Shown: positions 5,226 through 62,084 of the stretch, one piece after another
How positions within the stretch are numbered: the first letter of the stretch is position 1
Layout of the letters: each line of letters begins with the position of its first letter
Notes under the pieces: model-generated
What the model saw: only the letters and a program-made list of their open reading frames with translations
What the model was told of the DNA's origin: nothing
Databases searched by the model: none
Made by a program: the position numbers and the translations under genes
Source: Rhabdophis nuchalis
Lineage: Eukaryota; Chordata; Lepidosauria; Squamata; Natricidae
Length of the DNA: 64,000 bases
Assembly (NCBI GenBank): GCA_039707465.1
Contig: CM077645.1
Span: forward strand, 142,098,503 to 142,162,502
Reading direction: 5' to 3'

Positions 5226-5723
5226 AAATGACATTCCTTTCTCCCCTTCCCCAAAGAGGATCATAACAGAACTTAATCAAAGGAAAATACGGAGATGCCA
5301 ATTGACTCCCCCTGGAAAGATCACAATTTTATTTTATGTTAAATTCATCTCCTCAGATTAAACAATATTGAAGCTGGAAGGCCGATTTTACCTTGGTACC
5401 AGTTTTTATGCTTCTATTCATACTGTATGAGCAATCTATCATAATAAAGGTTATAATCTATCAAGAATTTTGGCTGCCCAGTTGGCTTTTCAATCTGAGT
5501 TTCTTCCAAGTGTTTTCCTGAATAATCTAGGCAATCTGAGTGGAAGGATTTATTTTATCAATTCTCTGATTTCCCAGGCCTCATTATCTAACTGACCTAA
5601 ATTTTCCTATCTATCCAATGCCCGCTTATTCCAATCCAGACTATCAAAAACATGTGCTTACTACCATTTTAGCAAGAGGTTACTGCTTCCAATGTATTTT
5701 CTAAATGACTTTCATTAGTATTA

Positions 5724-6309
5724 CAATACAATACAATAGCAGAGTTGGAAGGGACCTTGTAGGTCTTCTAGTCCAACCCCCTGCGTGGGCAGGAGCCTTA
5801 TACCATTTCAGACAAATGGCTATCTTACATCTTTTTAAAGACTTCCAGGGTTGGAGCATTCACAACTTCTGGAGGCAAGCTGTTCCAGAGGTTAATTGTT
5901 CTAACTGTCAGGAAATTTCTCCTTAGTTCTAAGTTGCTTCTCTCCTTGATTAGTTTCCACCCATTGCTTCTTGTCCTGCCCCGAGGTGCCTTGGAGAATA
6001 GTTTGGCTCCCTCTTCTTTGTGGCACCCTCTCAGATATCGGAACACTGCTATCATGTCTCCCCTGGTCCTTCTCTTCATCAAACTAGACATACCCAGTTC
6101 CTGCAACCGTTCTTCATATGTTTTAGTCTCCAGTCCCCTAATCATCTTGGTTGCTCTTCTCTGCACTCTTTCCAGAGTCTCCACGTCTTTTCTACATCGT
6201 GGCGACCAAAACTGTATGCAGTATTCCAAGTGTGGCCTTACCAAGGCACTATACAGTGGCATTAACACTTCACGTGATCTAGATTCTATCCCTCTGTTGA
6301 TGCAGCCTA
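5724..6309 (-). mobile_element. 5'-truncated CR1 (L3-type) LINE
   Basis: The copy is antisense. Its 3' end (5724-5800 on the plus strand) is the CR1-type block GGGACCTTGTAGGTCTTCTA flanked by a short TATTG repeat. It matches the long copy at 58905-60680 closely up to 6309, where homology stops, so it is a 5' truncation of about 0.59 kb. Confidence 0.9.
5825..6268 (-). pseudogene. CR1 ORF2 C-terminal fragment
   Basis: A 147-codon open remnant corresponds to about residues 390-536 of the CR1 ORF at 58990-60621 and is nearly identical to it. It contains the RPHLEYCIQFWSPRCRKD and NLWNSLPPEVVNAPTLEVF segments of the post-RT region. It lacks the reverse transcriptase and endonuclease domains and the final residues, so it is non-functional. 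Confidence 0.85.
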
Positions 6310-9289
6310 GTTATAGTGCTGTGTTAGGATATAACAAAAAAGATATGAATACCAAAACAGACATAGCACAATTAAAAAATTAAAAACTACAAGCCCTCAA
6401 AAATATCATTCCCTATTTAAAATTCTGGCTTTATGTAAAGGTATCCCACTCCCCCTTCGGTTTCCTGTCCCATTTTAAATGAGGCCCCTAGTTTTCAGAA
6501 GGTCCATTCCTGCAGAAAAACCTGACTGGAATTTAGTTCTTCATTTTAAGAAGTATTTCATCAACATTTTCACATGTTAAGTTTAACCATTCAAGTTGGA
6601 AACGTATTGAAATACTCGCTAAATATACACTTTAAGTATGATATTAAAAGATAGCATTAATTGCAGCTCTGAACAATCAGCACCCACCCAAAAGCATCTT
6701 AGAAAATATAAATACCTCTTAGAAAATATAAAGTGATAGTATTAAGAGCATTGGTGTGGACAAAACATAATGGGATGTACATAAAGAAAAAGCACAATAA
6801 ACCAATAACAGTGAGGAAAATCAATTGCAATTCCATTTGTAACTTACAACACAAGAGCACTGATATATTAACACAAGAAAGCTACAATCTGAAGCACTCA
6901 AAGAAACACACAATGACTTATCCCCTGTCATTGGATCTGTCTACACAATCTAAAATTAATCTCTAGCTTTTCTAATATAAAAGCTGCCATGTGTCTCATT
7001 ACTTCTGTTCGCTGCCTAATAGTAAACCTGTGTGTTTTACTTAAGGAACAGCTCCTAGGTGTTATATTTTCAAAAATGAGGGGTCAGCCAATAACTTTTA
7101 CTTTGTCCAAGTCTCTCAACAAATTTGGATGAAATCTGAAACTTGCATAGTTCTTAAAATCTAATCGATTTCCTGTCATTTCCGTCATTCTTTATGAATG
7201 TGACTTAATACTGAAGTTTCTTCTTCATACAAGCCTTTTTAAATTCCTCTACCTGGTTTCTTTTAATAACTTTAAGTTGTCAAAGAGCTTTGGTTTGACA
7301 GTTGGGTTCAAATTAACAAAAGTTTTGCCAGCTTGGATTTGAAAGTTTGAAAATATTTGAAAACTCAGGAGAAACTCTATTATATACTGACTTGTACATG
7401 AACACCTGTAGTCAAACTGCTGAATAGGCTACTATCACTGTTTTGAATGAAGAAAAAAGGAAAATATAACCCATGAAGATTAAAATCAGTCCCCCAATAC
7501 CCAAAAGCCAGAAAGAAATTATCATATTCCCTTTTTAACAAAACTGTCAGCCTACATATTTATCAACAAATCAATCTGAAATGCAATAGGTAATTATATT
7601 AAGATGATTTTGAAATAGGCTACTGCTAATAAATAATACATTACAAAGATATTATTTAAAAGCATATAATTAAAATGAAAGCGTAAAAATGTTTATCATG
7701 CTAAACATTAGTTTTGCTGGTGTAGAAGAGTTGTATTAATCCTACAAGAGATTTGATCATTCCAGTATTATTGAATTGATTTCAACAATGCACTCTATAG
7801 AATAATTCAATATTCTTATCTACTTTCTCCATATTATGCATGACTTTATATACCACAATCATACCGCCTTCCATCATCTTTTTTTAATGAAACAATACAC
7901 AATATTCTAAGCTTTAAGGCAATCTTCAAACTTAAATCATCCTGACTGCTCTCTTCTGCACTTTCCCCCACTTATATCCTTCTCAAATATGGTGAATAGA
8001 ACTGTTCACGCTACTGCATATACAGACATGTTTTAGATTTTATAAAGGCATAACGATGTTGACAGTTACACTTTCAGTCAATCATTTGTAATTCCTAGCA
8101 TGGAAATTGTTTTCTTTTGTTTTTCACGGCTGTTGTGTATGGAGTTGAGATTTTACTGAGCTATCACCATGACCCCCAAGATCTTTTTTTAACTTGGAGA
8201 CAGACCCACTATTGTGCATGTGATATTTATTTGAACGTTTTTGCTGAGGAAATTTGTCAAATTCTTTTTGAAAATTAAGGTATACAATATTAAAAGGGTT
8301 TCACCAAATTATGGAAGATTGTGAAGGCAGATAAACAGATGTTTCCATGTTGATCTTTCTTCAGCAAGACTCATTATTCTATTCTCATTATATGGGTATT
8401 ATTATTATTTTTTATTACCATTTCTGCCACTTGGCCTAGAATAGACTTTTAAACAAATTTTCATTTAAAAAATTGTGTTTCCCTGGTTAGTTTCCAGTTA
8501 TGTCACACTGAGGCCTATTTGGGAGACAAGTGTCATACTTTTACTAGAAAGTCAGCAATTTCAGTTATGACAATTTCAGTGTCAATTCAGCATTTAACAA
8601 CTCTCAGTTGGATGGCTTTGGATCTAGCATAAAATGTGGTCTGGGTCATCTTATGAATGGCACACCTTGGAAATGTAATTTTTTTTGATGATCAAACTGG
8701 TGCAACTACTTTGCTCCAAATGCTGTACATGTATTGATAATTGATGTGATTGTCAAGTTAGACTAGATCAAAAAACTGACTCCACAGGAAGACAACTATA
8801 CTTCATGGAAATAAGATATAGCAATAGAATCCTGCCCGTTTGCCTATGCTTTACCTTCCCTCCCTTTTATTTATCACTGAGACCGGGAGGAGCCAGGCTG
8901 AGAATCTTCCCAATATTTCCTTCTTTCCCGGGACTTAAGGATTGATTCTACCATTATTTCCGTAGCAGTTTTTGAATATTCCCTTCAAGATCCTCTTCAT
9001 GGTTTTCTACAGAGACAGAGCAAAAGTTTCTATATAGTATACTGACAGCAAAAAATCTGGCTGACTTAAGTCTGAATACTTAACTAATGTATGGATCAAA
9101 CTACAAGATTACATTTTCACTATGAATTTATATAAGCTTTATGCCAGTTTAACTGTCAGGGATTACCATGGAGTACCCTGATAATTCCAGCGGAACAAAA
9201 GTACCAGATTACAGCGTAGGCTTTTTGAACTACACTGGCCTTTAGTACAAGTTTCTTTTTAACACAATTATCCCTCTGGAAACTTGTTC
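6310..9289. other. AT-rich DNA, nothing recognised
   Basis: About 3 kb with no repeat family, RNA gene or coding frame that I can identify. One 19-bp sequence (CTTAGAAAATATAAA type) is duplicated near 6698 and 6718. Confidence 0.5.
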
Positions 9290-10880: not shown

Positions 10881-11006
10881 GATATATATATATGTTTTTG
10901 TAGATTTTCATGGGTGCATGCTGGTCTTGTTGTATTCGGGTCCTTTCCCATGTAAGATTGAGATTGTCTTGGCAACGTTGTGGTGAGGTCTCACCATCTT
11001 CAGGCT
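10881..11006 (-). repeat. Outer arm, left, with hammerhead-like remnant
   Basis: Minus-strand sequence homologous to 11919-12046. It includes CUGAAGA followed by a perfect 7-bp stem (UGGUGAG/CUCACCA). The following position should read GAAA in a hammerhead but reads CAAC here, so this copy would be inactive. The segment resembles terminal repeats of Penelope-like retroelements, which are known to carry minimal hammerheads. That assignment is an inference. Confidence 0.4.
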
Positions 11007-11011
11007 GGAGA

Positions 11012-11042
<31 letters not shown>

Positions 11043-11074
11043 GGTTTTTGAGCTGATCAATAAATAAAGCAGGG

Positions 11075-11121
11075 AGATAGGATAGATCTATTTCGAGCTT
11101 TTTACCTGTCATCACCTAGCC
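11075..11121 (-). ncRNA. Degenerate hammerhead ribozyme remnant
   Basis: On the minus strand the order stem I, core, stem II, CGAAA, stem III, cleavage site is still recognisable. However, the core reads GUGAUGA instead of CUGAUGA, and stem II (CAGGUAAAAAGCUC) no longer pairs. Expected to be inactive. Confidence 0.6.
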
Positions 11122-11188
11122 ATACCCTTACTGGGATTTGAATATATATATATATATATATTAGCTCTCATCAGCTAGCCATACCCTT

Positions 11189-11260
11189 ACTGGGATTCGA
11201 ACCAGGGCTGTATTACATGCCAGGCGAGAGCCTTGCCATTAAGCCAGCTAGGTTCTGTTC
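11189..11260 (-). promoter_or_regulatory. tRNA-like Pol III promoter module (A and B boxes)
   Basis: Minus strand: A-box-like TGGCTTAATGG at 11236-11246 and a perfect B box GGTTCGAATCC at 11193-11203. They bracket a CTCTCGCCTGGCA segment resembling the anticodon arm of tRNA-Gly(GCC). The paired acceptor stem of a functional tRNA is absent. It feeds directly into a ribozyme sequence truncated by (TA)n at about 11160. Confidence 0.7.
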
Positions 11261-11471
11261 TTGTCAGCTGAGACAAGAGGATAGTTATATATAATTGTTT
11301 CCACAACACCCTGTTAAGGCCCCAATTAAGGGAGGAAGCACACTGCTTTTCCTTTTCTGCTTTTCGGCTCATCACCAGAGACCATCTAGACAGAAAGCCA
11401 AGAATTCCATTGTGTAATTTTTTATATGTGTGTTACGATTTTGAGCTGATCAATAAATAAGGTAAGGGTAT

Positions 11472-11518
11472 GGCTAGCTGATGAGAGCTAATGAGCTCGA
11501 AATAGATCTATCCTAGTC
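11472..11518 (+). ncRNA. Type I hammerhead ribozyme, complete
   Basis: All hammerhead parts are present in order. Stem I 5' strand is GGCUAG (11472-11477) and the core is CUGAUGA (11478-11484). Stem II is GAGCU/AGCUC with loop AAUG (11485-11498), followed by GAAA (11499-11502). Stem III is AUAG/CUAU (11502-11511), with a 2-nt loop, or 3 bp with a 4-nt loop. C17 is at 11512 and stem I 3' strand is CUAGUC (11513-11518). Stem I forms 6 pairs including one G-U. Predicted cleavage is between 11512 and 11513, after AUC. Stem I is the open helix, making this type I, and a very short stem III is typical of hammerheads in animal retroelements and satellites. Activity is not shown. Confidence 0.85.
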
Positions 11519-11741
11519 TCCCTGACTTATTTATTGATCAGCTCAAAAACGCAACACACATATAAAAAATTACACAACGGAATGCTTGGCTTTCTGTCTA
11601 GAATCTAGATGGTCTCTGGTGATGAGCCGAAAGGCAGAAAAGGAAAAGCAGTGTGCTTCCTCCCTTAATTGGGGCCTTAACAGGGTGTTGTGGAAACAAT
11701 TATATATAACTATCCTCCTGTCTCAGCTGACAAGAACAGAA

Positions 11742-11805
11742 CCTAGCTGGCTTAATGGCAAGGCTCTCGCCTGGCATGTAATACAGCCCTGGTTCGAATC
11801 CCATT
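11742..11805 (+). promoter_or_regulatory. tRNA-like Pol III promoter module (A and B boxes)
   Basis: A-box-like TGGCTTAATGG at 11748-11758 and B box GGTTCGAATCC at 11791-11801, 32 bp between them as in tRNA genes. The middle (CTCTCGCCTGGCA) resembles tRNA-Gly(GCC). The ribozyme at 11814 starts 12 nt after the B box, so a Pol III transcript starting here would carry it. Confidence 0.75.
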
Positions 11806-11813
11806 AAGGGTAT

Positions 11814-11860
11814 GGCTAGCTGATGAGAGCTAATAAGCTCGAAATAGATCTATCCTAATC
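11814..11860 (+). ncRNA. Type I hammerhead ribozyme, near complete
   Basis: Core CUGAUGA (11820-11826), stem II GAGCU/AGCUC with loop AAUA (11827-11840), GAAA (11841-11844), stem III AUAG/CUAU and C17 at 11854. Stem I is GGCUAG (11814-11819) with CUAAUC (11855-11860), one C-A mismatch in six. Predicted cleavage is between 11854 and 11855. With the copy at 11472 it forms a direct dimer with 342-nt spacing. Confidence 0.8.
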
Positions 11861-11918
11861 TCCCTGACTTATTTATTGATCAGCTCAAAAACGTAACATA
11901 TATATATATATAACCAAA

Positions 11919-12046
11919 GGCACCAGCCTGATGATGACGGGTGTGATCCCATCGAAACGTTGCCAAAACACTTTTAATTTTACACGGGGAAACACCTGAA
12001 TAGACCAAGACCTACATACCTATACCCGTGAAAATCTACGAAAACA
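11919..12046 (+). repeat. Outer arm, right, with hammerhead-like motif
   Basis: Contains CUGAUGA (about 11932), a following stem-loop with GGG/CCC closing plus one mismatch, then CGAAACGUU. This order matches a minimal Penelope-type hammerhead. Stem III would be almost absent and a U is bulged before stem II, so this is much weaker than the motifs at 11472 and 17829. The remainder (to ATCTACGAAAACAAATA) is homologous to 10881-11006 in inverted orientation. Confidence 0.35.
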
Positions 12047-12047
12047 A

Positions 12048-12082
<35 letters not shown>

Positions 12083-16984: not shown

Positions 16985-17096
16985 AGATATAGATATAGAT
17001 ATAGATATAGATATAGATATAGATATAGATATAGATATAGATATAGATATAGATATAGATATAGATATAGATATAGATATAGATATAGATATAGAT
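16985..17096. repeat. (GATATA)n microsatellite
   Basis: Near-perfect 6-bp repeats, about 18 copies, ending exactly where the ribozyme-unit spacer starts (ATAATTGTTTCCACAACACC). In an uninterrupted unit the same place reads AATTATATATAACTATCC, so the array probably grew from the element's own AT tract. Confidence 0.95.
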
Positions 17097-17318
17097 AATT
17101 GTTTCCACAACACCCTGTTAGGGCCCCAATTAAGGGAGGAAGCATACTGTTTCCTTTTCTGCCTTTCGGCTCATCACCAGAGACCATCTAGACAGAAAGC
17201 CATGAATTCCGTTGTGTAATTTTTTTATATGTGTGTTACGTTTTTGAGCTGATCAATAAATAAGTCATCTATCATAGTCTCCCTGACTTATTTATTGATC
17301 AGCTCAAAAACATAACAG
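17097..17318. mobile_element. tRNA-hammerhead element, inverted-pair remnant
   Basis: 17097-17265 is the unit spacer in minus orientation. 17266-17282 is a ribozyme 3' remnant (TCTATCATAGTCTCCC: stem III end, cleavage site, stem I 3' strand). 17283-17318 restarts the unit in plus orientation. The two flanking copies of TGAGCTGATCAATAAATAAG and its complement make a hairpin around the ribozyme remnant, as at 11427-11551. No tRNA-like module remains. Confidence 0.75.
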
Positions 17319-17391
17319 AGATATAGATACAGATAGATATAGATATAGATATAGATATAGATATAGATGATATAGATATAGATATAGATAA
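17319..17391. repeat. (GATATA)n microsatellite, interrupted
   Basis: Second GATATA/GATA array, directly after the ribozyme-unit remnant. The two arrays therefore flank the unit on both sides. Confidence 0.9.
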
Positions 17392-17712: not shown

Positions 17713-17751
17713 ATTTATATAAATAATTATTAATAATAATGTATCAGGGAT

Positions 17752-17820
17752 ACCGGATAGCTCAAGGCATAGAGAGGCTTGCCTCATATGGTGGAGGACA
17801 CCGGTTCAAATCCCAGTAGA
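17752..17820 (+). promoter_or_regulatory. tRNA-like Pol III promoter module (A and B boxes)
   Basis: A-box-like TAGCTCAAGGC at 17758-17768 and B box GGTTCAAATCC at 17803-17813. The intervening sequence differs from the 11.7-kb module, so the tRNA ancestor may differ or the loop region may have diverged. The ribozyme starts 15 nt after the B box. Confidence 0.7.
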
Positions 17821-17828
17821 AGGAGTAT

Positions 17829-17875
17829 GGCCAGCTGAAGAAGGCTAATAAGCCTGAAATGGATCCATCCTGGTC
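17829..17875 (+). ncRNA. Type I hammerhead ribozyme, complete, covarying
   Basis: Stem I is GGCCAG (17829-17834) with CUGGUC (17870-17875). The core is CUGAAGA (17835-17841); the changed base is the permitted variable position 7. Stem II is AGGCU/AGCCU with loop AAUA (17842-17855), followed by GAAA (17856-17859). Stem III is AUGG/CCAU and C17 is 17869, so predicted cleavage is between 17869 and 17870. Compared with 11472-11518, one pair in stem I, two in stem II and one in stem III changed on both strands with pairing kept. This covariation is strong evidence that the RNA structure was selected. Confidence 0.88.
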
Positions 17876-18235
17876 TCTTTATTTTCAGTCCTTAAAAATC
17901 TAACACATATCTAAAAAATTTCACACAGCAGTAATCTAATTGGTTCTCTGTCTGGATGATCTCTAGGTTGAGTCGAAGGGCAGAGAGGGATGACGTTAAG
18001 TCTCCTCCCCTTAAAGGGACCCTTGAACAGGAGCTGTGATAATATTCTCTCAATTATTAATAATCCGTACACATCTTCCTTTGTAGCCAGCATTCAGATA
18101 AGCAGGAAATAACACCAGACAAAGAGGCAGAAAGCAATACTTTAATTCATGTAACTACCAGGAAGGAAAGCAAATGACCACCAAAACTGGTAGGTCATGT
18201 TTACTATACATAAACAGTGAGCAAAACCACACTTA

Positions 18236-41872: not shown

Positions 41873-42938
41873 TACCGTATTTTTCAGAGTATAAGACGCA
41901 TCGGAGTACAAGACGCACCCAGGTTTTGAAGAGAGGGAGAGAAAGAGAGAGAAATACAGTAGGTAGGTAGGGATAGAGAGAGAGTAGGTAGGTAGGCAAG
42001 TAGGTAGAAGGGGAGAGAAAGAGAGAGAGGAAATACAGTAGGTAGGTAGGTAGGTAGGTAGGTAGGTAGGTAGGGAGATAGAGTGTGTAGTTAGGTAGGT
42101 AGGTAGGTAGGTAGATAAAGGATAGAGAGAGAGAGAGAAATACAGTAGGTAGTTAAGTAGGGAGAGAGAGTGTGTAGATAGATAAGTAGGTAGAGGATAG
42201 AGAGAGAGAAATAGAGAGAGAGAAATACAGTACATAGGTAGGGGGAGAGAGAGTAGGTAGATAGGTAGATAGAGGGGAGAGAGAGAGAAATAGGTAGGTA
42301 GAGGGAGAGAGTGTAGGTAGGTAGGTAGGTAGGTAGGTAGATGTTTCCAGGTGTATTTACCCATGTGCTGGAGAAGGAAATCACTGACCACCTTTGGAAC
42401 AAATCTTTTTTCTGCAGGCACAGTACTTGACCGACATAATTCTTATCAATCACTCTAACTAAACAGCTTTCTAAAGGGGGGGGGACCTTTTTGCACTGTG
42501 CAAACCTCCCCAAAACGGCCCGTTTTTCACAAAAATGAGCCCTTTATTCAAATAAAAGGCATGAATAGCCTTGAGGGGCTTGCAGAGTGCTCCTGGGGGG
42601 GTGGGCCCCCCGAAAACAAGGAAAAATGGCCCGGTTATTTTGTGAAAACAGGCTGTTTTTTAGTCAAAAAATAGCATGCATAACCTTATGGAGGCTTATA
42701 GAGTGCTGCTGGCGGCTGGGGTGGGGGCAAAAATGCCCAGGATTTTGCTCGTTTCTGCCCTCCCCAGCCCCCAGGAGTTCTCTGGAAGCCTCCATAAGGG
42801 TATGTGCACGGCCATTTTGGTGAAGGGGCGGGTTTTCAGGAGGCAAAAAATGCTGTATTCGATGTATAAGACGCACCCAGATTTTCAGCCTCTTTTTAGA
42901 GGAAAAAAGGTGCGTCTTATACTCCGAAAAATATGGTA
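41873..42938. mobile_element. TIR element, TACCGTATTTTTCGGAG family, copy 2
   Basis: Ends TACCGTATTTTTCAGAGTAT and ATACTCCGAAAAATATGGTA form a clear inverted repeat, continuing into AAGACGCACC / GGTGCGTCTT. Interior: GGTA minisatellite (41940-42340), a GGTGTATTTACCCATG region, then non-coding blocks with CCCTTTATTCAAATAAAAGG and GCTCCTGGGGGGGTG. No transposase. Confidence 0.88.
41940..42340 (+). repeat. GGTA / GAGAGAGAAATACAGTAGG minisatellite inside TIR copy 2
   Basis: Irregular units of roughly 50-70 bp. Each has a GAGAGAGAAATACAGTAGG block and a GTAGGTAGGTAG run, with 4-bp slippage and single-base changes. Confidence 0.9.
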
Positions 42939-45900
42939 CATCTTTTTAATGATCACTGATTAGGAAAAAAAAATACATTATGTAATAAAATATACATAGC
43001 TTGAATAGAGATGTATTACATTTGCAATTAAGTTTGCGCAATGCCTGCATTAGAATATTTGGGGGGCCAGTGAAAAGTCTTTTCACAGGGGTCTTTGAAG
43101 TGCTATAATTTGTGCGACACAATGAATTCCATCCCTACCAAATGGAAAATATCTAACATGCCATCTCTAGTCCATAGATACAATCTAGAAATGGCTTTTT
43201 ACTTCATTCTATGTACATAAACTGATCAGATCTTAAGTTTCAGAGTTGAAAGTGCAATATGGCAGCAGATATTCATGATGTAACATTAATGGATAAATTT
43301 TCCCTCCCTTGGGAAATGCTTGCATAAAACAACAAATAAACCTCCATGAAGTGTAACATATATACAGTATTTTTCAATTTATTAAATTTCCCAAAATGTT
43401 CTGCATCTGAAACTTTAAGTCTTGGGCAACATGCTGTTGGAGGTACAGGACAACCTTTACTGTATCAGTTACTTCCTATAAATCCATTCATTCTTGCTGT
43501 CTGCAAGAATGTCTGATTTTACCCCAGGTTACACTGGAAGCAGCATAGTACCAGTGAATACAACAATAAAAATATAGTTAAAGAAAATAGATAGATGATA
43601 GATGGATGGGTGGGTGGGTGGGAAGACAGGCATTCAGACAGACAAATAAATAATCAGTTTTTTTCAAAAGAGGCTTGTTAAAGCTTTGATAATTTCTGTG
43701 AGAAAGCACAAAAATAATGGGGGGAAAAATTAAGTCCAGAACATTATTTGAAGAAACTAAAGAGCAACATTATTAAAAGCAAAAAGAAAGAATATAAAGT
43801 TGGTTTATATGATCAAGGTTAAAATAGATATGTTGTTATCTCTGGTAACCTTTAATGGACTTTTGCTGATCAGGATAAAATTTCACTGGAGAGAGTGGGG
43901 AAGTAAAAGGAGGGAGGGAGGGAGGGAGGGAGGGAGGGAAGGAAGGAAGGAAGGAAGGAAGGAAGGAAGGAAGGACGGAAGGAAGGAAGGAAGGAAGGAG
44001 TAATATTAATTTTTGTAGGTGCTCATAGTCAGGATAGACTGGGGCAGTGTAAATATAGTAAAAGAAACCAAATAAAATAAATTAAAAGGAAGGGAAATCT
44101 CTGACATTCACTGCCAGCTTCCCACAAGAAAATTTAATAGGTAAGTCAAAAGGAAGTTTTAAGTAAGTCCTACTCCAACTGATTGTTTTTTCTGTTTAAT
44201 GTCTCTGAAACAATGACCTGATGGGGCACTGGTTGTCTAATGTGTTACAAAATTCTAAATGAATTTATCACAATTGGAGAATCAATTTTACTTTCAGACT
44301 TCACAGTTAATACCAATTGTTCACACCTGCAAACTTTCTTGATTACCATTTCTTCATCTTTGCTAGGCGTAACTCTTAATTATGATTGGGTGAAAGGAAA
44401 ATGAAACTTAAGAAAGTGAAAATCAGACAGATCGACTGAAGCTACACATTGCATAATGCCAGGGTTAATTTTAAACACAATTTGCCAATAAAAGCCTTGA
44501 AGCTTATTCCATACTTAGTATTAAGCCATGCACCATTGTTTCCAAAATTAAAGCTTCATTGATTACATTAAATCAAATCAAACCAAACCAACCTGTTGTA
44601 TCATTTAGTCGAATGTGCAAAACCCAGGCAATGTGCGAAGTGTTGATGTCACCTACTTTATTATAACTACATCAACTGATGGCATATTAGCCCTCACGTG
44701 TTTGTTCAGAGGCAATTTAGTCCTTGAACTAACACAAGTTTCTCATTCTGTCTAGAAACTAAGCTAATTGAAGCTTTTTTTCTCACAAGCTAATTTTGGT
44801 CTGGGGAAGATTTTTGTCAAGATCAGCAGCAGGAGAAAGTTAAATCTCCCTATTCTGCATACTGTATATCCAATTCAACACAAATGTTCTCTAAATGTAT
44901 CTTTTTTTAAAAATAATTCTCATAGAAAGCCTCTTGTAATTAAGCCTCTAGAGTTCACATATGAGCATAAATGCATGAGCACAACAATACAAAACAAAAA
45001 TAAACAAAACTCATCTGCTCAATTTCAATCCTAGAGACGAACTGAGGGCTGAATCCAACAGTAACAGAGTGCATGGTTATACATAGGAAAACATTTTAAT
45101 CAGACAAAATTGGGGCAGCTGTTTGTCTGAAAAGCAGGAGTCTTGAAAGTATATAGGAGCAGTGATGTATCATCATGTAGCATTGGTAAATATCAGTAAA
45201 AAAAATCTAGTTAGCTAAAGTTCAAGAGAAGTTAATTTATAAAATATGAAGGGAAGAAAAAGGAGGAAAGAAAAATGTTCTTGTTCCAAAAAAGACCTGC
45301 CACAACGCCTCTGATCATTGCTGTGATATGTGCAGTTTATCACTTACAATTGTGAACTATCTGGAGAAAATGTGACTAGAGATGTTTCATAGCACTGTGA
45401 TAACATTTAATCATTCTTCCAGGCTGCAAAGATACTGACATGAAGTTACGGATTAAATAACACTAAATTGTTTTAGCATTATATTTTCATCAGTAGAACA
45501 TTTGTTTTCTGAATCATATAAATGAGGTTAAGCAGTCTTCTCCAGTCTGGTGCCTTTCCAATGCATTGGGAGTTCAAATACCTGCATTCCTGTTCAAAAA
45601 ACCCAACAACCAAATGGACTGGAAATTTTAGAATTTGTAAAAGGAAATAGAATGCATTACTCTACATCTGATTCAAACTATTGATAACTCAACATTTTTA
45701 TCTAATTCAATTAGATAATTTGAATTGATAATTTGATTTGGATTTATGTGAATTAATTGTTATCATGGCTCTGGTAAGTAAATTATATAATTATGTCATT
45801 TACTAAAGCATAAATGCCATTCCAGTTCAAAACCAATGTTCAGTTCAACAACCTATCTCAGGGTGGGTAGTATAGGCGCAGCTGTGAGTTGGAAAAAGTT

Positions 45901-49577: not shown

Positions 49578-50200
49578 ATTTGTGACTAACCAGTCACTTT
49601 CTGCAACATGGTTTTGCTTTGGATTCAGATTAATCCTTAAAACTGACCGTTTGGAGCGACGAAAGATTTAAAAAATTAATTTTGATTTATTTCCATACAT
49701 TTCTCCTAAGGGCAATTAAGTCTAGAGTTGCAGATATAATTACTGAGTATAAATTTTGAAGATACCTTGGAGCTCAATATAATGCTGGTAACATTACTAC
49801 AACGTGAAATCAATCCAACTCAATGTTGTTAAAGCTAAGGGGAGACAGGATAGTGGATCTCAAATAATTGAAAGGTTTTCATGGGCAGTAGTATGTCAAT
49901 GTGTTCTCTATAGCTCCTGGTGATAAGGAAGAACTGGGTAGAAGCTTTACAGAGGGAATACCAAATTCCAAACTAGGGAGAAACATCCTAATTGTGATAA
50001 TTATTAAGTAGGAAAATATCCTAACTACAGAAATCATGAGCACAACATATTGAATTGGAAGACCTCCACCCCTGTTTTTCGATGACTCAATAATATTTAA
50101 ATTTATAATTTGATAAATTATAACATTCCATGAACTTTTTTTTAAATTAAAAATGGAAATTATAAAACTAACAGATCATATATATATCTATATATATATA
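49578..50200. other. AT-rich DNA, nothing recognised
   Basis: AT-rich, ending in a (TA)n run at 50179-50200 that abuts the ribozyme element. Confidence 0.5.
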
Positions 50201-50212
50201 GCCATACCCTTA

Positions 50213-50275
50213 CTGGGATTTGAACCTGAGAAGTATTACCTGTGAGGCAGGTATAATTGCCACTAAGCCACAGGT
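50213..50275 (-). promoter_or_regulatory. tRNA-like Pol III promoter module
   Basis: Minus strand: A-box-like TGGCTTAGTGG and B box GGTTCAAATCC (50216-50226). Same structure as the plus-strand module at 50537. Confidence 0.65.
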
Positions 50276-50536
50276 TCTCCTCCTCAATCAGCTGAGCCAG
50301 GGGAATAAGTATATATTGTGTCACAACACCCTGGTATGCCCCAAATATAGGTGGGAGCAGAACTGCTTCCCTTTTCTGTCTTTTGGCTCACTCTATGAGC
50401 CATCCAGGCAGAAAGCTATTTTTTGTTGCCTTTGTTATATTTGTGTTATGTTTGTGCTGATAAATAAATAAAGGGAGACTAGTATAGATCTATGCAATAT
50501 ATACTTATTCCCCTGGCTCAGCTGATCGAGGAGGAG

Positions 50537-50600
50537 AACCTGTGGCTTAGTGGCAATTACAACTGCCTCACATGCAATACTTCCCAGGTTCAAATCCCAG
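50537..50600 (+). promoter_or_regulatory. tRNA-like Pol III promoter module
   Basis: A-box-like TGGCTTAGTGG at 50543-50553 and B box GGTTCAAATCC at 50587-50597. The ribozyme remnant begins 8 nt after the B box. Confidence 0.7.
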
Positions 50601-50605
50601 GGTAT

Positions 50606-50649
50606 GGCTAACTGATGAGAGCTAAATAGCTTGAAATAGATCTATAGTC
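50606..50649 (+). ncRNA. Degenerate hammerhead ribozyme
   Basis: Core CUGAUGA, stem II GAGCU/AGCUU (one G-U), GAAA and the stem III palindrome AUAGAUCUAU are intact. However, three bases are deleted at the cleavage site and start of stem I, leaving AUAGUC in place of AUCCUAGUC. Stem I cannot form properly, so cleavage is not expected. Confidence 0.7.
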
Positions 50650-50807
50650 TCCTTTTATTTATTTATCAGAACAAATGTAACACAAATATAATAAAGGCAG
50701 TGAAAAAAAAGCTTTCTGCCTAGATGGCTTCTAGGGTGAGTCAAAAGACAGAAAGAGGAAGCAGTTCTGCTCTCTCCCATATTTGGGACATACCAAGGCG
50801 TTGTGAC

Positions 50808-53145: not shown

Positions 53146-54601
53146 TACCGTATTTTTCGGAGTATAAGACACACCGGAGTATAAGACGCACCAAGGTTTT
53201 GAAGAGGCAAATTACAAAAAAAGTAGGTAGGAAGGTAGATAGATAGAGGGAGAGAGAGGGAGAGAAAGAAAGAGAAATACGGTAGGTAGGTAGATAAAGG
53301 GATAGAGAGAGAGAAATAGAGAGAAATACAGTAGGTAGGTAGGGAGAGAGAAAGAGAGTAGATAGGTAGGTAAAGTGATAGAGAGAGAGAGAAATAGAGA
53401 GGGAGAGAGAAATACAGTAGGTAGGGAGAGAGAGTGCCTGTGTAGGTAGGTAGGTAGGTAGGTAGGTAGGTAGGTAGGTAGGTAGGTAGATAAAGGGGAA
53501 GAGAGAGAAATACAGTAGATATGTAGGGGGAGAGGGAGAATGTGTGTGGGTAGGTAGGTAGAAGGATAGAGAGAGAAATAGAAAGAGAGAGAAATACAAT
53601 AGGTATGTAGGGGGAGAGGGAGATGTGTGTGTGTAGGTAGGTAGGTAGAAGGATGAGAGAGAAATAGAGAGAAAGACAGTAGGTAGTATGGAAGAGAGAG
53701 AGAGTGTGTGTGTAGGTAGGTAGGTAGAAGTATATATAGGTAGGTAAAAAGAGAGAGAGATTAGGTAGGGAGGTTGATGTTTTCAGGTGTATTTATCTAT
53801 GTCCTGCAGAAGGAAATCGCTGACAAACCTTAAAACTTCGTTTCTACTTGCTCAGAAACAGTTAAAGAGCCTTCCGAAAGGGGGGGGGGGAGCCTTTGCA
53901 TGGGACAAACTTCCAAAACAGCCCATTTCTCCGTGAAAATGAGGCCATTTTTTTTCCAAATAAAAAGCATAACTAGCCTTGGGCGGGGGCTTGCAGAATG
54001 CTCCTGGGTGTGTGTGAAAAATGAGCAAAAAACCCTCCCCATTTATCGCCCGTTTGAGGCTAATTCCTGCCCTCCCCAGCCCCCAGGAGCTGTCTGGAAG
54101 CCTCGGCACAGCCAGTTTGGTGAAGGGGGCGGGGTTCCAGGAGGCAAAAAGGGTTTTTTTGCGCTTTGCATACTTCCCCAAACTGCTCTTTCTCCACGAA
54201 AACGGGGCCGATTTTCTTCAAATAAAAAGCATAACTAGCCTTGGGGGACTTGCAGAATGCTCCTGGGGGGGGGGATAAAAATGAGCAAAAAAATCGTCCC
54301 ATTTATCACGAAAACGGACCATTTTTATGTCAAATAAATTGCATGCATAGCCCTATGGAGGCTTATAGAGTGCTGCTGGGGCCTGGGGGAGGGGGAAACG
54401 GCCCGTTTGAGGCTAATTTCTGCCCTCCCCAGCCCCCAGGAGCTCTCTGGAAGCCTCCACAAGACTAGGCACAGCCAGTTTGGTGAAGGGGGTGGGGTTC
54501 CAGGAGGCAAAAAATATTGTATTCGATGTATAAGACGCACCCAGATTTTCAACCTGTTTTAGAGGGGAAAAGGTGCGTCTTATACTCCGAAAAATACAGT
54601 A
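53146..54601. mobile_element. TIR element, TACCGTATTTTTCGGAG family, copy 3
   Basis: Ends TACCGTATTTTTCGGAGTAT and ATACTCCGAAAAATACAGTA with TA borders, extended by AAGACGCACC / GGTGCGTCTT. The GGTA minisatellite fills 53225-53785. The interior block with AATAAAAAGCATAACTAGCC and GCTTGCAGAATGCTCCTGGG is tandemly duplicated (about 53890-54150 and 54150-54280). Largest of the three copies; no transposase. Confidence 0.88.
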
Positions 54602-58904: not shown

Positions 58905-60680
58905 ACAATACAATACAATACAATACAATAGCAGAGTTGGAAGGGACCTTGTAGGTCTTCTAGTCCAACCCCCTGCATGGGCAGGAATCTTACACCATTT
59001 CAGACAAATGGCTGTCCAACATCTTCTTAAAGACTTCCAGGGTTGGGGCATTCACAACTGCTGGAGGCAAGCTGTTCCAGAGGTTAATTGTTCTTACTGT
59101 TAGGAAATTTCTCCTTAGTTCTAAGTTGCTTCTCTCCTTGGTTAGTTTCCACCCATTGCTCCTTGTCCTGCCCCCAGGTGTCTTGGAGAAAAGTTTGACT
59201 CCCTCTTCTTTGTGGCACCCTCTGAGATATCGGAACACTGCTATCATGTCTCCCCTGGTCCTTCTCTTCATCAAACTAGACATACCCAGTTCCTGCAAGT
59301 GTTCTTCATATGTCTTAGTCTCCAGTCCTCTAATCATCTTGGTTGCTCTTCTTTGCACTCTTTCCAGAGTCTCCACGTCTTTTCTACATCGTGGCGACCA
59401 AAACTGTATGCAGTATTCCAAGTGTGGCCTTACCAAGGCACTATACAGTGGCATTAACACTTCACGCGATCTAGATTCTATCCCTCTGTTGATGCAGCCT
59501 AGAACTGTGTTGGCTTTTTTGGCAGCTGCTGCACACTGCTGGCTCATATTTAAATGGTTGTCCACTAGGATTCCGAGATCCCTCTCGCAGTTGCTACTAT
59601 TGAGCAAGGTACCACCTATACTGTACTTGTGCATTTGGTTTTTCTTGCCTATATGTAGGACCTTACTTTTTTCACAATTGAATTTCATTTTATTAGACAG
59701 TGCCCAATGTTCAAGTTTGTCTAGATCCTTCTGTATCTTAAGCCTATCTTCTGGAGTGTTGGCTATTCCTGCCAGCTTGGTGTCGTCTGCGAATTTGATG
59801 AGTTCCCCATTTATCCCCTCATCCAAATCGTTGATGAAGATGTTAAAGAGTACTGGGCCTAAAACAGAGCCTTGGGGGACTCCACTGCATACTTCCTTCC
59901 ATGTAGATGCAGTTCCATTGAGGACTACACGTTGAGTGCGGTTGGTCAGCCAGTTACGAATCCATTTGGTGGTGGTGCTGTCTAACCCACAATTTTCTAC
60001 TTTATCTAATAGTAGGTTATGGTCTACTTTATCAAATGCCTTACTGAAGTCCAGGTAAATTATATCAACAGCATTCCTCTGGTCCACTGATTTTGTTACT
60101 TTGTCAAAGAATGCAATTAGATTCGTCTGGCATGATCTGTTTTTGACAAACCCATGTTGGCTTTTGGCTATTACTTTGTTTGCTTCTAGGTGTTCACTTA
60201 TTTGTTGTTTAATTATCTTTTCCAGAATCTTTCCTGGTATTGAGGTCAGGCTGATGGGTCTATAGTTTCCTGGATCTGTTTTTTTTCCTTTTTTGAAGAT
60301 GGGAACCACATCTGCTCTTTTCCAGTCTTCTGGCAGTTCCCCGGTGCTCCAGGATCTCTGAAAGATATAGTTCAGTGGTTCTGAGATCTCGTCTGCCAGT
60401 TCCTTCAGAACCCTGGGGTGTAATCCATCCGGTCCTGGTGATTTGAACTCGTCCAGGGCAGACAGGTGCTCACTTACCATTTTCTTCTCTATTTCAACTT
60501 GTGTTCCTAATCTGATATTTGTGGTGCTGTTTTTGATTGATTGGACTGTTTTATCCCTTTGTGTAAAGACAGATGCAAAGAAAGAGTTAAATAGTTCTGC
60601 TTTCTCCCTGTTGCTTATCATCTTCTTGCCATTTTCTCCCAGCAGTGGACCAATTGTTTCCTTAACTTTTTTCTTATTTT
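58905..60680 (-). mobile_element. CR1 (L3-type) LINE, 5'-truncated, largest copy
   Basis: Antisense copy of about 1.78 kb. The 3' end is the CR1 block (GGGACCTTGTAGGTCTTCTA on the plus strand) ending in five TATTG repeats. The 5' end stops near 60680, so the apurinic-type endonuclease domain is missing. The uninterrupted 544-codon frame indicates a recent insertion. Confidence 0.93.
58990..60621 (-). CDS. CR1 ORF2 reverse transcriptase with C-terminal region (5'-truncated)
   Basis: 543 residues with every RT landmark in order: SPGPDGLHP (61-69), GNYRPISLTSIPGKILEK (118-135), QHGFVKNRSCQTNL (155-168), YLDFSKAFD with the first catalytic Asp (189-197, D191), GVPQGSVLGPVLFN (247-260) and FADD with the catalytic Asp pair (277-280). 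The C-terminal part includes RPHLEYCIQFWSP (398-410) and LWNSLPP (514-520) and ends LSEMV. CR1 RT copies its own RNA at a nicked target site. The frame extends some codons upstream of this Met to the truncation point, so the Met is not a real start. The endonuclease is missing, so the copy cannot transpose by itself. No stop or frameshift is seen. Confidence 0.9.
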   Translation of the reverse strand: MISNREKAELFNSFFASVFTQRDKTVQSIKNSTTNIRLGTQVEIEKKMVSEHLSALDEFKSPGPDGLHPRVLKELADEISEPLNYIFQRSWSTGELPEDWKRADVVPIFKKGKKTDPGNYRPISLTSIPGKILEKIIKQQISEHLEANKVIAKSQHGFVKNRSCQTNLIAFFDKVTKSVDQRNAVDIIYLDFSKAFDKVDHNLLLDKVENCGLDSTTTKWIRNWLTNRTQRVVLNGTASTWKEVCSGVPQGSVLGPVLFNIFINDLDEGINGELIKFADDTKLAGIANTPEDRLKIQKDLDKLEHWALSNKMKFNCEKSKVLHIGKKNQMHKYSIGGTLLNSSNCERDLGILVDNHLNMSQQCAAAAKKANTVLGCINRGIESRSREVLMPLYSALVRPHLEYCIQFWSPRCRKDVETLERVQRRATKMIRGLETKTYEEHLQELGMSSLMKRRTRGDMIAVFRYLRGCHKEEGVKLFSKTPGGRTRSNGWKLTKERSNLELRRNFLTVRTINLWNSLPPAVVNAPTLEVFKKMLDSHLSEMV

Positions 60681-62084
60681 CTTATTTTTAACATGTTAAA
60701 AGTATCCAAATCAAGTGGGAAAGAATTATATAAAAAGAACTTCACCAAATTGGTTTTGTTCGCTCAAAAGTCCAATTCTTTGCCCCCTTAACAAACAAAT
60801 GTAGATAATGTAATTCAACTGTTGACAGACCAAATATATCAGTGACTTAAACTGCAAGTCAGGAATAATTTTATCCTTCCAATGATATATAATTATTCTT
60901 TTGATCAACTCCTATGCTTAGATAGCCACAATTCCTCTTGTCTTAGGAATGTCAAATACTATACATAAAGCCATGGGTAAACTTCATGGGTTTGCATCTG
61001 ATGGTTCGGACCTTGAAGTTGCTTGTAATTAACAGCCGGTATCTGAGTTCTGCTTTTCTAAGTACAAATTTGTTTTCAATATTTTAATAAGTTCTGTGGA
61101 ATAATAAAATGGCAAATGAAGTTTGATAAAATTAATGTTTTTTAAAAAGTTATACAATATAATTAGTCACTGATTAACTTGTCAACAGTAAAGAGGTGAA
61201 AAAATATAACTAATACATATTCATTTGAAAATTTTGAAATAATTACATGTCATTCAACCTGTTTTTATCAAATACAAGTCTCATCTATCAAGTATGGTTT
61301 TCCTCCTGTTGAAAGAATAATCAAAAATATGAAGACAATTAGGTTAACTATTTCAACCTCTGCAGAAAGACATTGATGGGCATTTAAAGTTTAACATTAA
61401 CATTGTCTAAGATTTTCTTGGACTAAAAGCATTTAAAATCTAATTAAATCTAATTCCGTATGCACACTGGGAAATCATCTAAGCTAGAACTGCAGGAGTC
61501 AGTCAGTCTCTCTATTTATCTATCTTATTTCTATCCTCCTCAAAATAGCACTCACCAGAAGAATGAAGATCATGAAAGAAAATCTAATACTCTCTAGATT
61601 TATCTCTTTTCAGAAACTTAGTTTGTAGACATGGCAGCAAGTGCTGTAGAATGGGACATCATCCCTCAGAAAGTTCTAACCTAGGGGCCCTACAGAATTT
61701 ACTAACTCAATTCTGATTAATTAATATATACAAAGTTAGATATAGATTGATAGCCATAGATGGTGGCCTATTAAAAGTTTCATTAAGAGTATTATTTTGG
61801 GGTGGGTTTTTTTACCTGCTTAACAGTATTTCATAGAAACTGATACTCTCATTGTCAGAAACTCTGTATCCATGCAGATAGTTATCTTTATTTGATCTAT
61901 ATTATGTGGATGAATGGTATGGGATTCATTTCCATCTGTTTTAGGAAAGCAAGTTAATAACATTACATAAGCAAGGAAAACTAAACCACAGAAGTTCAGA
62001 CCCATCAGTGTTCATATCCCAGTTTTTGCGGGAAACTAAATGAGTCTTCTGCTCATTCTAAATCAAAATACATCCAGGTCTAGA
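60681..62084. other. AT-rich DNA, nothing recognised
   Basis: No repeat or coding signal recognised. Confidence 0.5.

What the first reader, a model, noticed from the sequence alone, without database searches (positions are those of the whole stretch)
11042..11900. tRNA-promoter plus hammerhead-ribozyme composite repeat in a squamate genome
Seen: complete type I hammerheads (11472-11518, 11814-11860) directly downstream of tRNA-like A and B boxes, in units of about 342 bp with no protein frame. Known: Schistosoma Sm-alpha repeats and the retrozymes of several animals pair hammerheads with small non-coding transposons that produce circular RNAs; salamander satellite 2 repeats also carry hammerheads. 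Inferred: this is a Pol III-driven self-cleaving repeat family of squamates, which I cannot name from known families. At least four loci lie in 64 kb, so copy number in the genome may be high.
Basis: partly seen in the sequence, partly recalled or inferred. Interest (0 to 1): 0.92.

Follow-up and report, generated by a model that had tools for sequence, protein, structure and literature searches.

The report
Self-cutting RNA jumping gene in reptile
A small jumping gene in a lizard- or snake-like genome joins a tRNA-like start signal to a self-cutting RNA, and its insertions carry the footprints of a Penelope-type copying enzyme, which bears on how such self-cutting elements spread.

Summary
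Three complete type I hammerheads lie at 11466-11524, 11808-11866 and 17823-17881; chance gives 17 in 12852 random windows. The 342-nt unit carries tRNA-like A and B boxes just 5' of the ribozyme; all five exact B boxes of the window belong to this family. Rfam hits stay below gathering thresholds. Stems covary, the core varies least, and a 10-nt palindrome in stem III points to dimeric cleavage. The family is dispersed and has young members: the 40 best of 2266 candidates are 98-100% identical. New here: copies are mostly foldbacks, left arm minus, right arm plus, whose RNA 3' ends cluster at two unit positions; 16 of 19 informative foldbacks use one site on each side. A repeat found beside 10 of 30 loci has the same layout and the published landmarks of the Anolis Penelope-like element PAc. 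Best reading: a Pol III-type, hammerhead-bearing retrozyme/SINE mobilised by Penelope-like machinery. Ribozyme activity, Pol III use and circular RNA are inferred. New variant of a known kind.

The parts
11463..11906 (+). right (plus) arm of the foldback: 1.3 retrozyme units, RNA 3' end at unit position about 48-52 against (TA)n
11513..11854 (+). one 342-nt unit, from hammerhead cleavage site to hammerhead cleavage site
11466..11524 (+). type I hammerhead, complete; predicted cleavage after 11512
11808..11866 (+). type I hammerhead, complete core, stem I 3 bp then mismatch; predicted cleavage after 11854
11748..11759 (+). tRNA-like A box
11791..11801 (+). tRNA-like B box (GGTTCGAATCC), 18 nt before the hammerhead core
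11159..11461 (-). left (minus) arm of the foldback, same unit inverted; A box from 11246 and B box from 11203 on the minus strand
11034..11142 (-). continuation of the minus arm with a second, damaged hammerhead (11070-11127; first core base changed), ending in (CA)n
11129..11186 (-). truncated hammerhead running into (AT)n
10889..11012 (-). Penelope-like element tail, minus copy, RNA 3' end outward
11918..12050 (+). Penelope-like element tail, plus copy, RNA 3' end outward
17085..17267 (-). minus arm of a second foldback inside a (GATATA)n tract
17267..17325 (+). plus arm of the second foldback, starting 7 nt upstream of the hammerhead cleavage site
17738..18051 (+). diverged single copy laid out like a SINE: tRNA-like head, hammerhead, body; outer limits inferred from the possible target-site duplication
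17823..17881 (+). type I hammerhead, complete, four compensatory pair changes against the other window copies; predicted cleavage after 17869
17803..17813 (+). B box (A box at 17758)
17725..17737 (+). possible 13-bp target-site duplication, left (right copy 18052-18064); 1% of random places match as well
50199..50493 (-). minus arm of a third foldback (A box from 50270, B box from 50226 on the minus strand)
50497..50807 (+). plus arm of the third foldback (A box 50543, B box 50587), ending in (TATC)n
50600..50658 (+). hammerhead with intact CTGATGA and GAAA but a deletion at the cleavage site

Best explanation
This is a non-autonomous, non-coding retroelement (a retrozyme with a tRNA-derived SINE-like head) with young copies. 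Shown: a 342-nt unit of tRNA-like A/B boxes, a type I hammerhead and a body, dispersed over the genome. Inferred step 1: the tRNA-like boxes drive Pol III transcription, giving tandem or full-length RNAs. Inferred step 2: the hammerheads cut, probably as dimers through the 10-nt palindromic stem III, giving monomers that may be circularised. Inferred step 3: a Penelope-like protein takes the RNA to AT/CA-rich DNA, nicks both strands, and extends each with cDNA started at one of two internal RNA positions (S1, unit 44-53; S2, unit 183-198). The two cDNAs meet head to head, which leaves the observed foldback with RNA 3' ends outward and 5' ends inward.
For: Hammerhead; HH9-like similarity. Dimer: the RNAcofold minimum of the 17.8 kb copy is the double hammerhead, -41.6 against 2 x -13.1 kcal/mol; perfect 10-nt palindrome in 38 of 40 distinct copies, one of the 38 being the (AT)n run of a truncated copy. 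Pol III-type boxes. Mobility: the 40 scored hits are 98-100% identical, on 9 contigs. Insertion mode in 30 loci: 86 arms; neighbouring arms '-+' 31, '+-' 5, '--' 2, '++' 1; RNA 3' ends at S1 35 of 86 and at S2 23 of 86, while 5' ends fall there in 2 and 1 of 86; 16 of 19 informative foldbacks hetero S1/S2 (nominal p 0.002); 22 of 86 arms align over more than one unit length. Partner: in the adjoining repeat the distance from the ATG after CTGA[AT]G to the end of GAAAC is 25 nt in 13 of 20 copies; the long end lies 113-116 nt in for 5 of the 7 copies where it was measured, and the stretch between short and long end is 29 nt in 6 of 7. For PAc of Anolis the paper gives a hammerhead cut 26 bp into the frame, RT starts 111-118 bp in, both DNA strands nicked and extended, AT-rich targets, and an optional 30-40 bp Penelope tail lying between two RT start sites (PMC11167929, main text read).
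Against: No Rfam or ARAGORN call above threshold. Single-strand folding z-scores of the five copies are weak, -1.0 to +0.76. The cofold minimum of copies 11466 and 11808 is not the double hammerhead. Pol III: TTTT lies just past the hammerhead in the 17.8 and 50 kb copies; absence of TTTT from the 11 kb unit is uninformative, since 65% of shuffles lack it too. Few 5' ends (5 of 86) lie within 12 nt of the cleavage site, so most inserted templates were not copied up to a cleavage-made end. For PAc the paper sees no difference in RT start between top and bottom strands, an RT start not homologous to the cut DNA, insertion unaffected by dead hammerheads, and no RNA reads ending at the hammerhead site: the first two do not match the hetero S1/S2 rule or the match of S1 to (CA)n here. 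The Penelope identity rests on landmarks, not on an RT or GIY-YIG ORF; the search for one (PF01541) did not complete. Position bins were set after seeing the histogram, and arms in nested insertions are not independent.
Confidence: 0.78

Rival explanations
1. A tRNA-derived SINE moved by a LINE, in which the hammerhead is a passenger without a role, and the foldbacks are twin-priming inversions or DNA rearrangements at microsatellites.
For: tRNA-like head; the lone 17.8 kb copy starts near the tRNA-like head and has a possible 13-bp target-site duplication; an RT ORF of LINE type is present.
Against: Hammerhead core varies six times less than other single-stranded columns (0.023 against 0.144) and stems covary. 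Twin priming (recalled) leaves one outer end at the element 3' end and an internal inverted piece, not two outward RNA 3' ends at two preferred sites. Joined body-to-tRNA junctions and arms over one unit length (22 of 86) need tandem or circular templates.
Confidence: 0.12
2. The unit is itself a decayed part (pseudo-LTR) of a Penelope-like element rather than a separate non-autonomous family.
For: Same insertion layout, type I hammerhead, adjacency in 10 of 30 loci.
Against: The Penelope-like tail has its own, different hammerhead-like motif and sequence; the unit has tRNA-like boxes, a full stem III palindrome and no stop-to-stop frame over 89 codons in the plus arm; in 20 of 30 loci no tail was found within 1.5 kb.
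Confidence: 0.06
3. Not exclusive of the best reading: the microsatellites next to the ends are made by the reverse transcriptase slipping on the AC/TA-rich start sites (telomerase-like), not chosen as targets.
For: S1 ends often run into (CA)n, whose sequence matches the RNA at S1 (listing); flank periodic in 28 of 47 S1 ends, 9 of 23 S2 ends, 5 of 21 others, against 2.1% background. Some ends, such as L004 left, L014 right, L028 right and L032 right, meet unique DNA.
Against: Some insertions lie inside one repeat tract on both sides, e.g. (GATATA)n at 17.0-17.4 kb, and flanks of (GATA)n or (CATA)n do not match the RNA.
Confidence: 0.35

Closest known systems
Sm-alpha / Sj-alpha SINE-like retroposons of Schistosoma
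   Same: tRNA-related (tRNA-Gln-TTG pseudogenes of S. mansoni proved similar to Sm-alpha) plus type I hammerhead in a short repeat (PMC2770079, passages; PMC8490949, passages)
   Different: Different phylum; here a palindromic, probably dimeric stem III, foldback insertions and two preferred 3' start sites. Sequence homology was not tested.
Metazoan non-LTR retrozymes (axolotl Rtz_331/353, mussel, cnidarian)
   Same: Non-coding tandem units of 170-400 nt with type I hammerheads; axolotl ones work as dimers; Penelope-like elements proposed as partner (PMC7229834, abstract, passages, sections 15 and 17 read)
   Different: 'Pol III' and 'inverted' do not occur in that main text; its discussion calls human and mammalian hammerheads isolated motifs. 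This would be a tandem family in an amniote
Penelope/Poseidon element PAc of Anolis carolinensis
   Same: Hammerhead motif, two-strand nicking and extension, internal RT start, tail between two start sites, AT-rich targets (PMC11167929)
   Different: PAc encodes RT and GIY-YIG endonuclease; the 342-nt unit has no long frame. PAc shows the same RT start on both strands, here most foldbacks with two assigned ends pair two different starts
Conserved amniote intronic hammerheads (HH9/C10, RECK) and Xenopus repeat hammerheads
   Same: Best Rfam hammerhead match here is Hammerhead_HH9; a repeat origin was proposed from Xenopus similarity (PMC3088659, passages; PMC6155905, passages)
   Different: Those are single conserved intronic copies; here a multicopy element with near-identical members
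tRNA-related tandem repeats of amphibians (newt PolIII/TAN, Xenopus OAX, Rana/polIII)
   Same: tRNA-like sequence in tandem repeats, about 250-360 nt in newt and Rana (PMC10702118, passages)
   Different: 'Hammerhead' and 'ribozyme' do not occur in that paper's main text; not compared by sequence

Membership tests
Type I hammerhead ribozyme | CTGANGA, GAAA, UH, three helices with stem I open | tested here: met
   3 complete motifs
Type I hammerhead ribozyme | Rfam curated gathering score | tested here: not met
   0 matches in the window; HH9 27.9 of 52 bits
Type I hammerhead ribozyme | Covariation in all three helices | tested here: met
   4 double changes in 5 copies, 0 in slid controls; 30 double-change cells against 7.2 in shuffles over 41 distinct rows, on an alignment fitted to the model; the count of such pairs, 6, was reached by 44 of 500 shuffles
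Type I hammerhead ribozyme | Self-cleavage | not testable with these tools
   needs transcription assay
Metazoan retrozyme | Non-coding unit of about 170-400 nt with hammerhead, in tandem | tested here: met
   342-nt spacing; 22 of 86 arms align over more than one unit length
Metazoan retrozyme | Circular RNA in tissue | not testable with these tools
   no transcriptome available
tRNA-derived SINE | A and B boxes at tRNA spacing at the head | tested here: met
   5 of 5
tRNA-derived SINE | Recognised as tRNA by ARAGORN or Rfam | tested here: not met
tRNA-derived SINE | Pol III transcription | not testable with these tools
   none
tRNA-derived SINE | LINE-related 3' end | not tested
   none
tRNA-derived SINE | Target-site duplication | tested here: inconclusive
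   13 bp at the 17.8 kb copy; 1% of random places do as well; not tested at the other loci
Penelope-type mobilisation | Insertions with RT start at preferred internal sites | tested here: met
   S1 35 of 86, S2 23 of 86
Penelope-type mobilisation | Both target strands extended (foldback, 3' ends outward) | tested here: met
   '-+' 31 against '+-' 5
Penelope-type mobilisation | Same RT start on both strands, as reported for PAc | tested here: not met
   16 of 19 foldbacks pair S1 with S2; paper statement
Penelope-like element | RT plus GIY-YIG ORF in the element itself | tested here: not met
   the unit (342 nt) is too short; longest stop-to-stop frame in the plus arm 89 codons, not scanned against Pfam

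The most novel reading that the evidence does not exclude
A currently active amniote retrozyme: a Pol III-transcribed, dimer-cleaving, possibly circular RNA that borrows a Penelope-like protein. That protein starts the two cDNA strands at two different internal RNA sites, one per DNA strand, so that each insertion is an asymmetric foldback. The same stock of elements is the source of the conserved intronic hammerheads of amniotes (HH9/C10, RECK).
Probability: 0.28. Interest if true: 0.9.

Novelty: new variant of a known kind. Interest (0 to 1): 0.77.

Why it matters
How animal retrozymes move has been open; the 2020 paper named Penelope-like elements as a strong candidate on circumstantial grounds (PMC7229834, discussion read). 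Here retrozyme and Penelope-like copies share an unusual insertion footprint and often lie side by side, which makes the partnership directly testable with the purified Anolis protein. It also adds an amniote tandem hammerhead family with a tRNA-like promoter, a combination described before in schistosomes, and offers a possible source for the conserved intronic hammerheads of amniotes.

Tried and rejected
Rfam gathering search: no hit. MIR6274 and mir-297 matches: the first is the foldback at 17223-17328, the others simple repeats. IMG/VR pattern hits L001 and L002: two overlapping contigs without similarity to the family (a script that stopped with an error after this result) and without an Rfam match at E 0.5, with phage-like frames; rejected as a chance tRNA-type match. 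Genome contigs pattern: 0. Absence of TTTT as Pol III evidence: uninformative. Single-strand folding energy as evidence: weak. RNA 5' ends at the cleavage site: rare (5 of 86 within 12 nt); instead 16 of 86 start at unit 11-20, just 3' of stem I, which may be RT stopping at the folded ribozyme. A first pattern test with one mismatch found no family copy because its spacing was wrong. Paper searches for a squamate or tRNA-headed hammerhead element showed none among the rows listed (9 to 25 rows per search, some of thousands of hits): (hammerhead ribozyme + reptile) listed all 9 of its papers. Papers asked for and not held: PMC4209133, PMC2933863, PMC2957048, PMC108972, PMC8557442.

Full report
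OBSERVATION. The window lies in a 1.918-Gb assembly of 348 contigs, G000:C3:142098503-142162502. Three complete type I hammerheads occur, at CTGANGA positions 11478, 11820 and 17835, none on the minus strand. Random sequence of the same dinucleotide make-up gives 17 such loci in 12852 windows, and none with a palindromic stem III, which all three have. Rfam's gathering thresholds are not reached; Hammerhead_HH9 is the best hammerhead match at 27.1 and 27.9 bits, E 0.0026 and 0.0014 over 11 kb. A covariance model built from the five window copies finds those five, one truncated copy at 11129-11186 minus (E 1e-5), and then noise (E 0.97 and above). Damaged copies are at 11070-11127 minus (first core base changed) and 50600-50658 (deletion at the cleavage site).

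tRNA-LIKE HEAD. All five exact B boxes (GGTTCRANNCC) of both strands lie in this family, each with an A-box-like 12-mer starting 43-45 nt upstream (1 mismatch to the recalled consensus in four, 2 in the 17.8 kb copy); a shuffled window has 0.67 B boxes, 0.27 A+B pairs at two mismatches or fewer and 0.05 at one or fewer. The hammerhead core starts 18 nt after the B box at 11791. ARAGORN and Rfam do not call a tRNA. So a Pol III type 2 promoter is likely but inferred.

RIBOZYME UNDER SELECTION. The 17.8 kb copy differs from the other window copies by four paired changes, one in stem I, two in stem II, one in stem III; slid pairings give none. Over 73 matches in the window and 29 genome loci (41 distinct rows; the alignment is fitted to the model), 95% of pair cells are standard and 30 cells carry double changes against 7.2 in shuffles and at most 5 in slid pairings; the number of pairs with a double change, 6, is reached by 44 of 500 shuffles. 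Core positions mismatch in 2.3% of cells, other single-stranded columns 14.4%, stems 10.1%, over 35 near-full distinct rows; 26 of these 35 (58 of 67 with duplicates) have an intact core. Many of the 67 are near-identical because the genome query spanned the ribozyme.

DIMER. Stem III is a 10-nt perfect palindrome in 38 of 40 distinct rows: AUAGAUCUAU 31, AUGGAUCCAU 6, and one that is only the (AT)n run of a truncated copy. For the 17.8 kb copy the RNAcofold minimum is the double hammerhead itself (-41.6 against twice -13.1 kcal/mol); for 11466 and 11808 it is not. Lone strands fold unremarkably. The axolotl retrozymes, with weak helix III and in one group a palindromic loop, also cleave better as dimers (PMC7229834 section 15).

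COPY NUMBER AND ARCHITECTURE. A 131-nt query (tRNA-like part plus hammerhead) gave 2266 first-look candidates; only the best 40 were scored, all 98-100% identical (the 100% one is the window itself), on 9 contigs. In the 30 fetched loci (L003 is the window's own) I mapped 86 arms to the unit. Arms lying within 25 bp of each other are '-+' 31 times, '+-' 5, '--' 2, '++' 1. The outward ends, the RNA 3' ends, pile up at unit 44-53 (S1, in AACGTAACACACA; 35 of 86) and unit 183-198 (S2, in AAACAATTATATATA; 23 of 86); inward 5' ends fall there in 2 and 1 of 86. With wider bins (31-60, 181-200) and two more window loci added, 33 foldbacks were seen; of 19 with both ends in S1 or S2, 16 combine S1 with S2, 2 are S1/S1 and 1 S2/S2 (nominal binomial p 0.002); the other 14 have at least one end elsewhere. 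Bins were chosen after seeing the histogram, arms cluster in nested insertions, and loci were picked by the query, so p-values are nominal. Outward flanks are simple repeats in 28 of 47 S1 ends, 9 of 23 S2 ends and 5 of 21 others, against 2.1% of 5000 random window positions. 22 of 86 arms align over more than one unit length, so templates were tandem or circular. 5' ends have a hot spot at unit 11-20 (16 of 86, nominal p 4e-9), right after stem I, but only 5 of 86 lie within 12 nt of the cleavage site.

PENELOPE-LIKE NEIGHBOUR. The foldback at 11 kb is bracketed by an inverted pair of another repeat, 10889-11012 and 11918-12050. Twenty copies of it lie in 10 of the 30 loci and none elsewhere in the window at E 0.001. 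In six 10-kb neighbourhoods, four of them picked knowing that they held the repeat, its 8 copies (the same ones as before) are all within 1.5 kb of the query copy and no further copy appears in the outer flanks; 4 readable random 10-kb stretches hold neither repeat (a fifth stretch read N). Measured from the ATG that follows CTGA[AT]G, GAAAC ends 25 nt in for 13 of 20 copies (others: 55, 13, 32, and 4 without the motif); the short-end motif lies 84 nt in for 10 copies, 87 for 3, 80 for 1 and 94 for 2 (1 spurious match, 3 not measured); the long end was measured in 7 copies, at 113 (3), 116 (2), 105 and 123; short and long end are 29 nt apart in 6 of these and 25 in one. Where a minus and a plus copy face each other, one arm has the short and the other the long end at 7 of 8 places (L005, L006, L007, L009, L011, L012, L021; gaps up to 385 bp; read by eye from the alignment); at L003, where the retrozyme lies between them, both have the long end. 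[quoted passage not shown] I therefore take the neighbour for a Penelope-like element, by landmarks and not by sequence match to a named record. Against full identity of mechanism: the paper sees no difference in RT start between the two strands and no homology between RT start and cut DNA, and dead hammerheads insert as well.

MECHANISM. Two-strand nicking with cDNA made from both 3' ends predicts minus-left, plus-right foldbacks with RNA 3' ends outward. LINE twin priming (recalled) does not predict two outward 3' ends at two preferred sites. The retrozyme thus looks mobilised by Penelope-like machinery. The lone 17.8 kb copy, with a SINE-like order and a weak 13-bp duplication, is an exception or an older mode.

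KNOWN OR NEW. Hammerhead SINE-like elements are known from schistosomes and hammerhead retrozymes from many animals, including axolotl; conserved single hammerheads are known in amniotes. Ten paper searches showed no tRNA-headed hammerhead family in a squamate among the rows listed, within the open-licence library only. I rate it a new variant of a known kind.

Noticed in passing
L003-L032, unit 11-20: RNA 5' ends of arms have a hot spot 11-20 nt downstream of the cleavage site, just 3' of stem I (16 of 86), as if reverse transcription stopped at the folded hammerhead.
   Followed up: partly
L005, L006, L007, L009, L011, L012, L021: Facing minus and plus copies of the Penelope-like tail pair one short with one long end (by eye), unlike the published in vitro result of equal starts on both strands.
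   Followed up: partly
window 17223-17328: Rfam MIR6274 match (42 bits, below its threshold) is the retrozyme foldback, a warning for microRNA annotation.
   Followed up: yes
window 58990-60681: 563-codon frame with a reverse transcriptase domain (CR1 type, recalled), closest named squamate match 70% to a snake protein.
   Followed up: partly
window 5722-6310 and 58914-59502: 96% identical 589-bp pieces of the same RT repeat, a young pair.
   Followed up: no
window 41900-42950 and 53300-54600: Tracts with YLPT-rich frames, 71-79% alike between the two places.
   Followed up: no
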